Program-made: the position numbers and the translations under genes | Assembly: GCA_012729595.1 (NCBI GenBank) | Contig: JAAYCU010000129.1 | Location: 1-47,352 of the forward strand | Length of the DNA stretch: 47,352 nucleotides | From: Phycisphaerales bacterium | GTDB lineage: Bacteria > Planctomycetota > Phycisphaerae > UBA1845 > PWPN01 | Direction: 5' to 3' | The notes under the pieces: model-generated | Databases searched by the model: none | The model's input: only the letters and a program-made list of their open reading frames with translations | Told to the model about the DNA's origin: nothing | Shown: positions 13,632-18,900 of the stretch, in pieces | Layout of the letters: each line of letters begins with the position of its first letter | How positions within the stretch are numbered: the stretch's first letter is position 1

Positions 13632-13981
13632 CACGAAGCCACCAGCCCGAAGCAGTTTACCCGATGTGGCGGGCAAGCGAGGGGTTTACTTGCCAGCCCG
13701 CAGCGTTTACCTCGCTCGCCACGGTATTTCAACCCTGAGGCTCTCGACGGGCGGGCCTCGGCGGGCCGTGTCGGGCCCGCGAGAGTTCTTCTCTCTTCAC
13801 CAGCGCGGACGACGGAGGGGCAAACAGACGGAGCGACGGCGGGATAGAGGTAACGAGCTACCGAGCGATAGAGCGCACCGCCTGGCATCCGCGTGCCCCA
13901 CCTCGTTCCGACGTGGGGGAAGCGATGATCGGCTGGCCGTGCGAATCAGGGGCGGATTGAGCGAAACTATCGCGGACAAGT

Positions 13982-13999
13982 AACCTCCTTAAGGAGGTT
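13982..13999. repeat. Perfect 18-bp palindrome AACCTCCTTAAGGAGGTT
   Basis: Read directly: left half is the reverse complement of the right half. Confidence 0.9.
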
Positions 14000-14060
14000 T
14001 CCCCGCCACGGGCTGATAGGCCGGCCGTTAGTACGTGTTTCGCGACCATGCAAACCCTGC

Positions 14061-14227
14061 TGGCATGTCCCATCAGAACCCCAAGCGCAAGCGCGGGGCC
14101 GAAGGAGGGAGGTTTTCGGCGTTCGTTGAGACACACGTTACCGGCCCACTCGCTCCCGCTCGGGGTTCAGATGGGGCACGCCCTCGGGCGTGTGTGTCGC
14201 TGAACACATACGGCCGTTCTACGGCCG
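14061..14227 (+). repeat. Dispersed 'NPKRKRG' repeat, copy 1
   Basis: GGCATGTCCCATCAGAACCCCAAGCGCAAGCGCGGGGCCGAAGGAG ... CGCTGAACACATACG; shares both blocks with copy 2 near 37.84-37.97 kb. Confidence 0.75.
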
Positions 14228-14280
14228 GTCGGCCTCGGCGCCCATGAATCCCCCTCTCGCCGTCATCCCCGCCAGTTTTC

Positions 14281-14323
14281 AACGGGCTTCTCCCCCGGTC
14301 GATAAGCCCGTTGGAAACGGGCT
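14281..14323. repeat. Three-arm inverted repeat (AACGGGCTT / AAGCCCGTT / AACGGGCT) with two mutually exclusive stems
   Basis: Arms at 14281-14289, 14304-14312 and 14316-14323; the middle arm is complementary to both outer arms. Confidence 0.75.
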
Positions 14324-14351
14324 CAACAACATTCGCATACGCCCAACCGAA

Positions 14352-14430
14352 CCAGTCGTACAACGACTGGCCTATCAGCCCTTCGGAAATGACCGCTGAA
14401 GCGGCCTTGCAGTTTTGCCCCGCTGCCAAC
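14352..14430 (-). repeat. Structured dispersed repeat, copy A (two hairpins)
   Basis: CCAGTCGT-ACA-ACGACTGG hairpin followed by CCGCT-GA-AGCGG hairpin; aligns to copy B with about 9 differences in 57 columns. Confidence 0.8.
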
Positions 14431-14569
14431 CGAAACAAAACGGCGCAAGTGGTGCCACCTTGAGAACCATGACCCCATATCCGGTTTCCGGCATCCACCA
14501 ACTTTTGAAATCCGACCACATTACCGTTATCCTGCCGACGTTTGCATTATCGGTAAAAGGGGCGAATGA

Positions 14570-17500
14570 ATGGCGAGACGGAATACAACGGGTCCGGCGG
14601 CCGCGGAAACAACGAGCGCGGCTTTCGCGCGGTCTGTTACCGAAGCCTATCTGTCGGAATTGCACAACATACGGTCAACGGGTGCCGGAGTGCCGGAAAT
14701 CCCGTATTACCCCGCCCTGGCGAATCTGTTCAACGCCGTGGGCAAGACGCTGAAACCGAAGGTCCGCTGCATCATCAGTATCCAGAACCAAGGGGCGGGT
14801 ATACCGGATGGTGGCCTGTTTACGGCCGACCAGTTTCAGAAACAGGCCGATTCAACTCCCGCGAGAGGCCAGCTTCCCTCACGAGGGGCGATGGAAGTCA
14901 AAGGCACCCGTGAGGACGTTGCCCGAATCGCTCAAACCGAGCAAGTCAAAAAGTACCTCGAACGATACGGCATCGTCATCGTGACCAATCTGCGGGATTT
15001 CCTGATTGTCGAGCGTGGCCCCGCGCAACAGCCCGTGGTGGCGAGGGAATTGTTTTCCCTGGCCGACGACGAGGAGGATTTCTGGCGAAACAAGGCCGCC
15101 CACCCCCGAGCCACCGCCCAACAATGCGGCGAGCGGTTCATCGAGTTCATCAAGCGGGCCTGCCTGCATAATGCGCCATTAACGAACCCGAAAGACGTTG
15201 CCTGGTTTCTGGCCTCGTATGCCCGCGACGCCCTGGCCCGGGTCGAGGGCCATAGGCAGCTTCCCGCCCTGCAAGGGGTCCGCACGGCCCTGGAACAGGC
15301 GTTGGGTATGAGATTCACCGAGGAGAAGGGGGAGCACTTTTTCCGGTCCAGTCTCGTGCAGACGATTTTCTATGGGGTCTTTTCCGCCTGGGTGCTCTGG
15401 CATCGGGAGAACCCCGGCCCGCGTGCGCGCTTCGATTGGCGAAACGCGGCCTGGACGTTGCACGTCCCCTTCATTCGCACGATATACGAGGAACTCGCCA
15501 AACCAAGCCGGCTCGGCCCTCTGAATCTGGTGGAGGTCTTGGAATGGGTGGCCGGCGTCTTGAATCGCGTGGACCGGGCGGAGTTTTTCGGAAGGTTTCA
15601 GGAGGAGCACGCCGTCCAGTATTTCTATGAACCGTTCCTGGAGGCCTACGACCCGGATTTGCGCAAGGAAATGGGGGTCTGGTTCACCCCGCCGGAAATC
15701 GTGAAATATCAGGTGGCCCGCGTCGATACCGTGTTGCGCGAGGAATTGGAACTGCCCGACGGCCTGGCGGATCCGAACGTCATCATACTGGATCTGTGTT
15801 GCGGGACTGGGGCGTATCTGGTCGAGGTCATCCATCGTATCGCCGAGACGCTCCGCGACAAAGGGGGCGACGCCCTGCTGGCCTCGGACCTGAAGAAAGC
15901 CGCGATGGAGCGGGTATTCGGTTTCGAGATTCTGCCCGCGCCCTTCGTGGTGTCGCACCTCCAACTCGGCCTGATGCTTCAGACGCAGGGGACTCCGCTG
16001 TCGCATCAGGAAGGCGAGCGGGTCGGAGTCTATCTGACCAATGCCCTGACCGGCTGGGAACCGCCGAGAGGGGTGAAAGCCACCCTGCCTCTGTATCCCG
16101 AATTACAGGAGGAGCGGGACGCGGCCGAGGAAGTGAAACGCAAGAAAAAGATACTGGTTATTCTGGGCAACCCGCCATACAACGCCTTTGCCGGAGTCAG
16201 CCCGGAGGAGGAGCAGGGACTTGTAGAACTCTACAAGAAGGACTTGAACACGCCCGTACAGGCCGGCGGCTGGGGCATCAGGAAATTCAACCTGGATGAC
16301 CTGTATATCCGTTTCTTCCGCCTGGCCGAACGCCGTATCGCCGAGATGACCGGCAAGGGGGTGGTGTCGTTTATCTCCAACTTCTCCTATCTGGGAGACC
16401 CGTCATTCGTCGTGATGCGCCAGCGTTTTCTGGGCGAGTTCGATAAGCTCTGGTTGGACTGCATGAACGGTGACAGCCGCGAAACCGGCAAGCTCACCCC
16501 GGAAGGCCGTCCGGACCCGTCGGTATTCTCCACCGAATACAACCGAGAGGGCATCCGCGTAGGTACAGCCGTCTGTGTCATTGTCCGCAAAACAAAGCGG
16601 GAGAAGGCCCCGACTGTCCGGTTCCGTCATTTCTGGGGAGTGTCGAAAAGGGCCGACCTGCTTACGAGTCTGGACGCCAGGAATTTCGACAAGGCATACA
16701 CCCGGGCCACGCCCAGCCGTCAGAATCGCTATTCCTTTCGGCCGGAGGAGGTCGCGAAGCAATACCAGTTATGGCCTCTTGTTCCAGAACTTGGAATCGC
16801 ACACTTCAACGGTCCTGTTGAACGGCGTGCTGGTGCATTGATTTCCATAGATCCTCAACCACTTCTGGAGCGATTGCGTGCATACTTCAACAAGGAGGTT
16901 TCCAATTCGGAAGTGGCAGCCCATTATGCTTCACTCATGATGACGGGCAATCGTATTGTTGGCCCCGAGGCAAGAAAAAAGCTATTACGTGAGCATATTT
17001 TTGATTCATCATTTATCGTGCGGTATCCATTCAAGGTCTTCGATATACGATGGGCGTACTTGGCGAATATACGCCCGCTTTTCAGTGAGCCAAGCCCAGA
17101 CCTGCTGAAGCACGCAATGCTTGCTTCCAATCATTTTTTCATCACTCGCGATACCGCCGACAAGGCGAAAGAAGGACCACCATTTTACTTTGCTCCTATT
17201 GTTTGTGATTACGACTGCATATCCGGACATGCGCGTCATTTTCCGATTCTTTTAAAAGCGGATACGAACGGCGCGCCTGGCGAGAACGGTTTTTTCGACA
17301 ACGAGCAGCCTCACGTAAACTTATCCAAAGCTGCCCGCGCATATCTGGCCAAGCTCGGCATCAAGGATCCGGACAAGGATATGAAAACGGCGAGCCTGAT
17401 CTGGCTGCACGCGCTGGCGATCGGCTACAGCCCGGCGTATCTGACGGATAACACCGACGGCATCAGGCGGGACTGGCCGCGCATTCCGCTGCCCGATTCG

Positions 17501-18109
17501 CGCAAGGCCCTGGAAGCCTCGGCCGCCCTGGGCGAGAAGGTGGCGGCGCTGTTGGATACGGAAAAAGAGGTGCGGGGCGTTACCACGGGCCGAATCAGCC
17601 CGTTGTTCAGGACTATCGGGAATATCGCCAAGGTCGGGGGCGGGGCCATCAATCCCAGCAGCGATGATCTGGCGGTGACGGCCGGCTGGGGGTACGCGGG
17701 CAAGGAAGGCGTGACCATGCCGGGCAAGGGGCGGGGGGTAGTGCGGCCTTACGATGGTACCGAGAAGCGGGCCATCTCGGCAGCGGCGAAAGCGCGGAGG
17801 ATGCCCCTGCGTACAATCGTGGAGTTACTCAAGCCGGAAACGGCCGACGTGTATCTCAATGATGCCGTCTTCTGGCGGAACATTCCGGCCGAGGTTTGGA
17901 ACTTTCATATCGGCGGCTATCAGGTCATCAAGAAATGGCTGAGCTATCGCGAACGGAACCTGCTCGGCCGTAACCTGAAACCGGAGGAAGCCCGGGAAGT
18001 GACGGGTATAGCTCGCCGCATCGCGGCCCTTGTTCTCCTGCAACCGGATTTGGACGAGAATTACCGACGGGTCAAGGACTCGACTTATCCATGGACGGCC
18101 GTTAGCTGA
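14570..18109 (+). CDS. Type ISP/IIG-like restriction-modification protein (PD-ExK nuclease + N6-adenine DNA methyltransferase + target recognition region), no helicase seen
   Basis: GIPDGGLF...GAMEVKG (PD-ExK-like) near the N-terminus; DLCCGTGAYLVEV (SAM motif I); NPPYNAF (catalytic motif IV); long C-terminal region. Confidence 0.88.
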   Translation: MARRNTTGPAAAETTSAAFARSVTEAYLSELHNIRSTGAGVPEIPYYPALANLFNAVGKTLKPKVRCIISIQNQGAGIPDGGLFTADQFQKQADSTPARGQLPSRGAMEVKGTREDVARIAQTEQVKKYLERYGIVIVTNLRDFLIVERGPAQQPVVARELFSLADDEEDFWRNKAAHPRATAQQCGERFIEFIKRACLHNAPLTNPKDVAWFLASYARDALARVEGHRQLPALQGVRTALEQALGMRFTEEKGEHFFRSSLVQTIFYGVFSAWVLWHRENPGPRARFDWRNAAWTLHVPFIRTIYEELAKPSRLGPLNLVEVLEWVAGVLNRVDRAEFFGRFQEEHAVQYFYEPFLEAYDPDLRKEMGVWFTPPEIVKYQVARVDTVLREELELPDGLADPNVIILDLCCGTGAYLVEVIHRIAETLRDKGGDALLASDLKKAAMERVFGFEILPAPFVVSHLQLGLMLQTQGTPLSHQEGERVGVYLTNALTGWEPPRGVKATLPLYPELQEERDAAEEVKRKKKILVILGNPPYNAFAGVSPEEEQGLVELYKKDLNTPVQAGGWGIRKFNLDDLYIRFFRLAERRIAEMTGKGVVSFISNFSYLGDPSFVVMRQRFLGEFDKLWLDCMNGDSRETGKLTPEGRPDPSVFSTEYNREGIRVGTAVCVIVRKTKREKAPTVRFRHFWGVSKRADLLTSLDARNFDKAYTRATPSRQNRYSFRPEEVAKQYQLWPLVPELGIAHFNGPVERRAGALISIDPQPLLERLRAYFNKEVSNSEVAAHYASLMMTGNRIVGPEARKKLLREHIFDSSFIVRYPFKVFDIRWAYLANIRPLFSEPSPDLLKHAMLASNHFFITRDTADKAKEGPPFYFAPIVCDYDCISGHARHFPILLKADTNGAPGENGFFDNEQPHVNLSKAARAYLAKLGIKDPDKDMKTASLIWLHALAIGYSPAYLTDNTDGIRRDWPRIPLPDSRKALEASAALGEKVAALLDTEKEVRGVTTGRISPLFRTIGNIAKVGGGAINPSSDDLAVTAGWGYAGKEGVTMPGKGRGVVRPYDGTEKRAISAAAKARRMPLRTIVELLKPETADVYLNDAVFWRNIPAEVWNFHIGGYQVIKKWLSYRERNLLGRNLKPEEAREVTGIARRIAALVLLQPDLDENYRRVKDSTYPWTAVS

Positions 18110-18233
18110 GGGAATGACGGCGATGCGGGGTACGTTCCGCTCCTTACCATTGTGATTCGCCGAATATTCGCGAAAGGACAGGCCCTAAAACGGGCTCGAG
18201 GTTTGTCGAGGGAATGGGATACCTTGCCTTGGA

Positions 18234-18313
18234 CCAGCCGTAGAACGACTGGCCTATGAACCCTTCGGAGAAGACCGGTAAACCGGCCTTTGCGATTTGT
18301 GCCCACCGCCGAC
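18234..18313 (-). repeat. Structured dispersed repeat, copy B (two hairpins)
   Basis: CCAGCCGT-AGA-ACGACTGG and CCGGT-AA-ACCGG; same order and spacing as copy A. Confidence 0.8.
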
Positions 18314-18900
18314 CCTCCGTCACCTTGTCTCCCCCATACCCTCTCCCGTTCCGCCCACGCTTACGCACCCGGACCGCCCCAACGTGTTTTATAAATGACC
18401 ATTCGCCGGCACCCGTTCCGCGCGCTGGGGGAAACATGACGCCGCATGGAACCGAGTATTCGCTATGGCCCACGAAACGAGCCAACCACTCAATAAAATA
18501 TTCCCCCTTTCGAATCTCAAAAATCCCGCCGGGTCTCGACGCTGCTCCCGATCTCGCCTTCGGATCAGGATGGGAATATAAAAAAGCGCCAAACGAACCC
18601 AAATGGCTAATCGTGCATAACGCCATTTATATTAAGAAGATATGGGTGATGCAGTGGCTCCTGAACACCTCGGAAAGCCTGGCCGGGTCGGGTTTCCCCC
18701 TTCACTATCCACCCCTGAATCTCCCTCCCTCGGTTCGCCCGTCCATTCATTGCTGGTGGATTTGCCGTGTACGTGCCTTTTTGGTACATTACCAAGTCTG
18801 TAAATATGCTCCGGCCCGGATTCCACTGTTGAGGGGAATGAGTTACTCCTTGCGGCGGGGTCGCGGGTTGGTTGTTGTTCTTCTAAGGGAGCCATCTGAA

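What the first reader, a model, noticed from the sequence alone, without database searches (positions are those of the whole stretch)
14352..18313. Structured repeat with compensatory base change on both sides of a restriction-modification gene
Copies at 14352-14430 and 18234-18313 share order, spacing and about 48 of 57 aligned bases. In hairpin 2 the stems are CCGCT/AGCGG (A) and CCGGT/ACCGG (B), a compensatory C-G to G-C swap. In hairpin 1, CCAGTCGT/ACGACTGG (A) becomes CCAGCCGT/ACGACTGG (B), which stays paired as G-U only in the minus-strand transcript. Both copies also keep a G-U at the base of hairpin 2 on that strand. This suggests selection on minus-strand RNA structure, or a hairpin-based mobile unit (REP/MITE-like). 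Same-orientation copies bracketing the RM gene could mark the borders of a mobile cassette.
Basis: partly seen in the sequence, partly recalled or inferred. Interest (0 to 1): 0.72.

Follow-up and report, generated by a model that had tools for sequence, protein, structure and literature searches.

The report
Hairpin ends of a Phycisphaerae transposon
The two repeats are copies of a three-hairpin DNA module found across many planctomycete (Phycisphaerae) genomes, where it flanks a specific branch of small single-strand DNA transposase genes, so they are most likely left-over transposon ends and not borders of the restriction gene that happens to lie between them.

Summary
Copies A (14350-14407, minus) and B (18232-18289, minus) share a three-hairpin module (a-m-b). 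At paired sites, GT outnumbers AC 124 to 12 on that strand.

Copy A is half of a longer palindrome. Its inverted partner lies at 13982-14229 and is split by another repeat. This inverted pair sits inside a decayed MITE whose ends match an ISKra4-like IS. Copy B is a truncated half.

The module occurs in 36 of 397 Phycisphaerae-class genomes, mostly as inverted pairs with the b sides facing. It flanks one clade of IS200-type Y1 transposases (support 0.998). In a blind set of 75 Y1 loci, the only full-scoring clade member had the module; 70 scoring below 90 bits had none.

Best reading: it is the end module of a Y1 transposon with REPIN-like, non-autonomous derivatives. It is close to REPs but is not one, because the foot is NTAG and the enzyme motif is Y---Q--HH. 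The R-M border idea is not supported. RNA and single-strand DNA selection cannot be separated here.

The parts
13935..14476 (.). Composite element: decayed MITE carrying an inverted pair of modules; terminal relics at 13935-13954 and 14455-14476
   Evidence: Same architecture as eight elements in relative G011 with ends GGGTCCGTGACAGAATCGGCGG...CCGCCGATTCTGTCACGGACCC; left flank shared with own-genome copy C283. End points approximate.
13982..14029 (+). Inverted partner module, first part: hairpin a' (AACCTCCTTAAGGAGGTT), remnant of m, foot and 5' arm of hairpin b'
   Evidence: CM hit 13982-14026 +, 36.8 bits, E 1.6e-7
14030..14212 (.). Nested second repeat inside hairpin b', flanked by GGCCGTT direct repeats, ends GTACGTGTT/AACACATAC
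   Evidence: Dispersed homologues in own genome (C193, C129, C141, C363, C308, C292 and others); interrupts the b' palindrome
14211..14229 (+). Remainder of hairpin b' (CGGCCGTTCTACGGCCGG)
   Evidence: CM partial hit 14211-14227 +
14271..14322 (.). Central palindrome c (GCCAGTTTTCAACGGGCTT...AAGCCCGTTGGAAACGGGC)
   Evidence: Inverted repeat I2, 86% complementary; matches centre of G011 elements
14350..14407 (-). Copy A: full a-m-b module
   Evidence: CM 70.3 bits, E 1.3e-15
14570..18109 (+). R-M gene (N6_Mtase plus Type_ISP_C specificity domain, 1179 aa); lies between A and B, judged not part of the element
   Evidence: Pfam, PADLOC, NCBIfam; patchy in the order, 14 of 114 genomes
18181..18203 (.). 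Relic of the central palindrome of copy B (GGCCCTAAAACGGGCTCGAGG)
   Evidence: Sequence and position match the centre in relatives; inference
18232..18289 (-). Copy B: full a-m-b module; partner half missing
   Evidence: CM 69.9 bits, E 1.6e-15
18290..18325 (.). Outer flank of copy B shared with A, C98 and C141 (MITE relic)
   Evidence: Alignment of right halves

Best explanation
The repeats are end modules of an IS200-type (Y1, HuH) transposon lineage of Phycisphaerae and its non-autonomous, REPIN-like derivatives. One unit is hairpin a, short hairpin m, a foot NTAG, then hairpin b. Two units in inverted orientation, b sides facing, form either a mini-element (gap about 45-170 nt, often with a central palindrome) or an element with a Y1 gene inside (gap about 550-710 nt). 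The proposed mechanism is inferred: the clade-specific Y1 enzyme binds hairpin b as folded single strand on the a-m-b strand, is guided by the NTAG foot, and cuts and rejoins the unit as single-stranded DNA, which keeps the stems paired. In this genome the copies look like relics: no cognate Y1 gene was found, A is split by another repeat, B is half lost. The pair in A sits in an ISKra4-type MITE that could also have moved it. Shown: module, covariation, inverted pairing, clade-specific link to Y1 genes. Inferred: binding, cutting, movement.
For: Covariation on 62 copies: 96.0% paired against 82.1% shuffled and at most 55% when slid; 14 of 23 pairs changed on both sides against 3-7 slid; score 0.344 against 0.119; 0 of 500 shuffles. 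Of 48 neighbouring pairs within 1 kb, 39 face each other with b inward, and six of these have gaps of 549-712 nt; each of those six holds a Y1 gene that scores above 200 bits with the clade profile. Module-flanked Y1 genes form one clade, 7 of 7, support 0.998. Blind test: among 75 Y1 loci picked by PF01797 alone, the single full-scoring clade member (279 bits) has a 68.8-bit module beside it; 70 loci scoring below 90 bits or not at all have no hit above 26 bits. The Y1 proteins match IS200 NF033573 above cut-off and the PDB transposases 2a6m, 2vhg and 2fyx. Homology stops at hairpin a in unrelated copies.
Against: No movement was shown: no empty site, no target-site analysis, and relatives lack hemA next to rpsP, so the site cannot be compared. 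This genome has five Y1 genes, none of the clade and none with a module found near it. Four Y1 genes of intermediate score (131-183 bits) have no strong module. Most pairs used for the facing-pair count came from loci fetched for a module. One flanked Y1 (G011:C189) has W where the catalytic Y should be.
Confidence: 0.78

Rival explanations
1. The module is a structured RNA (small RNA, or an mRNA-end or attenuation element) read from the minus strand and kept by selection on RNA folding.
For: Strong covariation and excess of GT over AC on one strand; REPs can act as RNA elements (PMC3733652).
Against: Copies sit in unrelated contexts, mostly as inverted pairs, and track a transposase clade. 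No Rfam family matches at gathering score. A ssDNA hairpin read by a Y1 enzyme, or C-to-T bias on an exposed strand, gives the same asymmetry.
Confidence: 0.12
2. The modules are only cargo of an ISKra4-type MITE that spread them; the link to Y1 genes is secondary.
For: Eight G011 elements and copy A lie between ends that match an ISKra4-like IS present in both genomes.
Against: Many copies (C52, G011:C189, G047, G049, G101) have no such ends, and the module with its Y1-clade linkage extends to other families of the class.
Confidence: 0.12
3. A and B mark the borders of a mobile R-M cassette (compound element).
For: Same-direction copies on both sides; the R-M gene is patchy in the order and lower in G+C (0.586 against 0.653 and 0.632 in hemA and trmD).
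Against: R-M homologues elsewhere have no modules; A is closer to C52 than to B; other copies bracket no accessory gene; A is a full composite and B a half.
Confidence: 0.05
4. The hairpins are paired transcription terminators between genes.
For: G+C-rich stems followed by short T runs; mostly intergenic in this genome.
Against: Terminator scan finds none in modules A or B (nine found in the region against 6.2 expected; one lies on the leftover of hairpin b' at 14211-14227); the foot and the three-part order are conserved beyond what a terminator needs.
Confidence: 0.05

Closest known systems
REP / REPIN with RAYT (TnpA-REP)
   Same: Short imperfect hairpin with a tetranucleotide foot, stem covariation, inverted doublets, linked to a Y1 HuH transposase gene (PMC3116915, PMC2817692, PMC3733652)
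   Different: Foot is NTAG instead of GTAG/GTGG; three hairpins; modest copy number seen; transposase has Y---Q--HH and not Y---NP, and is below the NCBIfam RAYT cut-off
IS200/IS605 elements (TnpA subclass 1.1)
   Same: Y1 transposase, HVH and Y---Q motifs, terminal hairpins; above the NCBIfam IS200 cut-off
   Different: The two ends are inverted copies of one module; non-autonomous pairs outnumber elements with the gene
TnpA-Y1 subclass 1.2 (PMC6006769)
   Same: Y---Q--HH signature, short protein, low copy
   Different: That subclass was described as generally without terminal hairpins and mainly from Cyanobacteria and Bacteroidetes; here it is in Phycisphaerae with a defined end module
TIRtrons / TIRYT (PMC3733652)
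   Same: Y1 gene flanked by long inverted repeats, some self-complementary, that also occur alone
   Different: TIRYTs belong mostly to subclass 2.1 with HTH domains and GGGGWSAS repeats (PMC6006769); the module consensus has no GGGGWSAS and the proteins match no HTH profile in Pfam

Membership tests
REP / REPIN | GTAG or GTGG tetranucleotide just 5' of the hairpin | tested here: not met
   NTAG: first base A 39, T 16, G 5, C 2; then T 56, A 60, G 62 of 62
REP / REPIN | Cognate RAYT (class 2, Y---NP) | tested here: not met
   Cognate clade has Y---Q--HH; REP_Tyr_transpos 26.1 bits against cut-off 80
REP / REPIN | Inverted doublets | tested here: met
   39 of 48 neighbouring pairs within 1 kb face each other
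REP / REPIN | High copy number, intergenic | tested here: inconclusive
IS200/IS605 (TnpA class 1) | Y1 HuH transposase with Y---Q | tested here: met
   PF01797 and NF033573 above cut-off; PDB 2a6m, 2vhg; alignment. One of seven has W for Y.
IS200/IS605 (TnpA class 1) | Left and right end hairpins on the same strand, no inverted ends | tested here: not met
   Ends are inverted copies of the module
TnpA-Y1 subclass 1.2 | Y---Q--HH signature | tested here: met
   Alignment of flanked Y1 proteins
TnpA-Y1 subclass 1.2 | Subclass-specific C-terminal domain | not tested
   Profile from PMC6006769 not available here
MITE with ISKra4-type ends (host of copy A) | Terminal inverted repeats shared with an IS in the genome | tested here: met
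   Clear in G011, relics only in window; IS end with transposase C-terminus in both genomes. The 36-aa C-terminus from G000 alone matched nothing; the family name rests on the G011 copy.
MITE with ISKra4-type ends (host of copy A) | Target-site duplication | tested here: inconclusive
   Ends too decayed in the window
Known structured RNA (Rfam) | Match at gathering score | tested here: not met
   No match in window
Compound mobile R-M cassette | Module copies at borders of R-M homologues elsewhere | tested here: not met

The most novel reading that the evidence does not exclude
A distinct single-strand transposon type of Phycisphaerae, between IS200 and REPIN systems: a subclass-1.2-like Y1 transposase clade with a dedicated three-hairpin, NTAG-footed end module used as inverted pairs. 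It would give a candidate DNA partner for a Y1 subclass described as generally lacking one.
Probability: 0.45. Interest if true: 0.65.

Novelty: new variant of a known kind. Interest (0 to 1): 0.5.

Why it matters
Subclass-1.2 Y1 proteins were described as close to IS200 transposases but without IS properties and generally without terminal hairpins (PMC6006769). A clade with that signature and a specific, covarying end module gives a testable enzyme-substrate pair, and may show how IS200 ends became REPIN-like doublets. It also gives an annotation model for a repeat that recurs across a little-studied class of bacteria.

Tried and rejected
R-M cassette borders: homologues of the R-M gene carry no modules, and synteny of trmD-rpsP in relatives gave no empty site because hemA is elsewhere. 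Rfam: nothing. Terminator reading: none in modules A or B. Plasmid collection: no match. First covariation count used a misplaced structure and was discarded (corrected). The best-scoring Y1 genes of the order were first thought to be partners; they are not flanked by modules and belong to other clades. Literature searches found no description of this module.

Full report
Observation. The two copies are real and in the stated places. They are 81% identical over 67 nt (14351-14417 and 18233-18299), and no other direct repeat in the 6 kb comes close.

Copies elsewhere. The same genome holds clear copies on contigs C52, C98 and C141, and another on C283. One relative in the same family, G011 (its C189 matches the Phycisphaerae MAG record JAUCQB010000189.1), holds many. 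There the copies are part of longer palindromes: outer ends GGGTCCGTGACAGAATCGGCGG, hairpin a, linker with hairpin m, hairpin b, a central palindrome, then b', m', a' and the inverted end. The window shows the same plan around copy A from about 13935 to 14476. The partner module (13982-14029 and 14211-14229) is split by a second repeat that is itself dispersed in the genome. The flank left of the partner matches the C283 copy. Copy B is a right half only.

Host MITE. The outer ends match the ends of an IS. In this genome six contigs carry an IS end at their contig end; in most of them a transposase C-terminus runs into GTCACGGACCC. In G011 a deletion derivative of the same kind of IS matches the ISKra4 profile NF033572. 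So the pair of modules in copy A most likely lies inside a MITE of that type. Other copies lack these ends, so the MITE does not define the module.

Structure. I aligned 62 modules and counted pairs for a three-helix structure. 96.0% of cells pair (82.1% shuffled, at most 55% when slid), 14 of 23 pairs have two-sided changes (8.5 shuffled, 3-7 slid), and no shuffle of 500 reaches any observed measure. Related sequences inflate such tests, and the structure was read from these sequences, but the slid control keeps relatedness and still falls short by a wide margin. On the a-m-b strand, pairs of the GT type outnumber the AC type 124 to 12, or 43 to 12 without the two basal pairs of hairpin b. 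It does not tell RNA from single-stranded DNA, nor selection from strand-biased mutation.

Distribution and arrangement. A covariance model finds the module in 36 of 397 genomes of the class, with at most 13 candidates scored per genome. Of 48 neighbouring pairs within 1 kb, 39 face each other with b inward: 33 with gaps up to 323 nt and six with gaps of 549-712 nt. Five of those six (L031, L038, L152, L161, L257) contain Y1 genes used to define the clade, and the sixth (L273) contains one found with the clade profile.

Transposase link. The flanked Y1 genes form one clade (7 of 7, support 0.998). To test the link without bias I took 75 Y1 loci chosen only by PF01797. One scores 279 bits with the clade profile, and it has a 68.8-bit module 60 nt away. 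Seventy score below 90 bits or not at all, and none of these has a hit above 26 bits. Four of intermediate score (131-183 bits) have no strong module; one of them has a weak hit (26.6 bits) next to the gene. The blind set thus holds only one true clade member; the other flanked genes came from loci fetched for their modules. The proteins are IS200-type by profile and by solved relatives, carry HVH and Y---Q--HH, and fall below the RAYT cut-off. In PMC6006769 that signature marks subclass 1.2, described as generally without terminal hairpins.

R-M gene. The gene at 14570-18109 has N6_Mtase and Type_ISP_C domains and is patchy in the order, 14 of 114 genomes. None of the homologues examined has a module nearby. 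A is closer to C52 than to B. I see no support for a cassette bounded by the repeats; two separate insertions are simpler.

How it most likely works. Shown: a conserved three-hairpin module, inverted pairs, a clade-specific Y1 partner. Inferred from IS200/IS605 and REP biochemistry (PMC6006769, PMC3733652): the enzyme reads hairpin b and the NTAG foot on one single strand and moves the pair. In this genome the copies appear to be relics, since no cognate gene was found.

Novelty. It works like a REPIN system and its enzyme is IS200-type, but it fails defining tests of both (foot, enzyme class, inverted ends). I file it as a new variant of a known kind.

Noticed in passing
L188, L200, L202, L205 (12 matches), also upstream of Y1 genes in L184, L185, L197: Other Y1 clades of the order have their own two-hairpin repeat, CGCCCGGAGGGCGCACGATGGTTGCCAGNGACTTCAGTCNCTGG, next to the gene and in arrays; the pairing of Y1 clade and hairpin family may be general.
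   Followed up: partly
L038:2769-3299 (G011:C189): A module-flanked Y1 protein has W in place of the catalytic Y (WVRNQKIHH), so it is probably inactive.
   Followed up: no
G000 contigs C70, C102, C148, C188, C198, C381 (ends): Contigs break about 125 bases into an IS with end GGGTCCGTGACAGTTTAGGCGG (or a near variant, C70), which suggests a multi-copy, recently active ISKra4-like IS.
   Followed up: partly
window 14030-14212: Nested repeat with GGCCGTT direct repeats and short inverted ends, dispersed in the genome; looks like a separate MITE family.
   Followed up: partly
window 14570-18109: Single-chain R-M enzyme with N6_Mtase and Type_ISP_C domains but no helicase match; nearest homologues are in other families of the order at up to 73% identity.
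   Followed up: partly
L169:2307-2365 (G000:C283): A further module copy in the own genome shares the left MITE flank with window copy A.
   Followed up: yes
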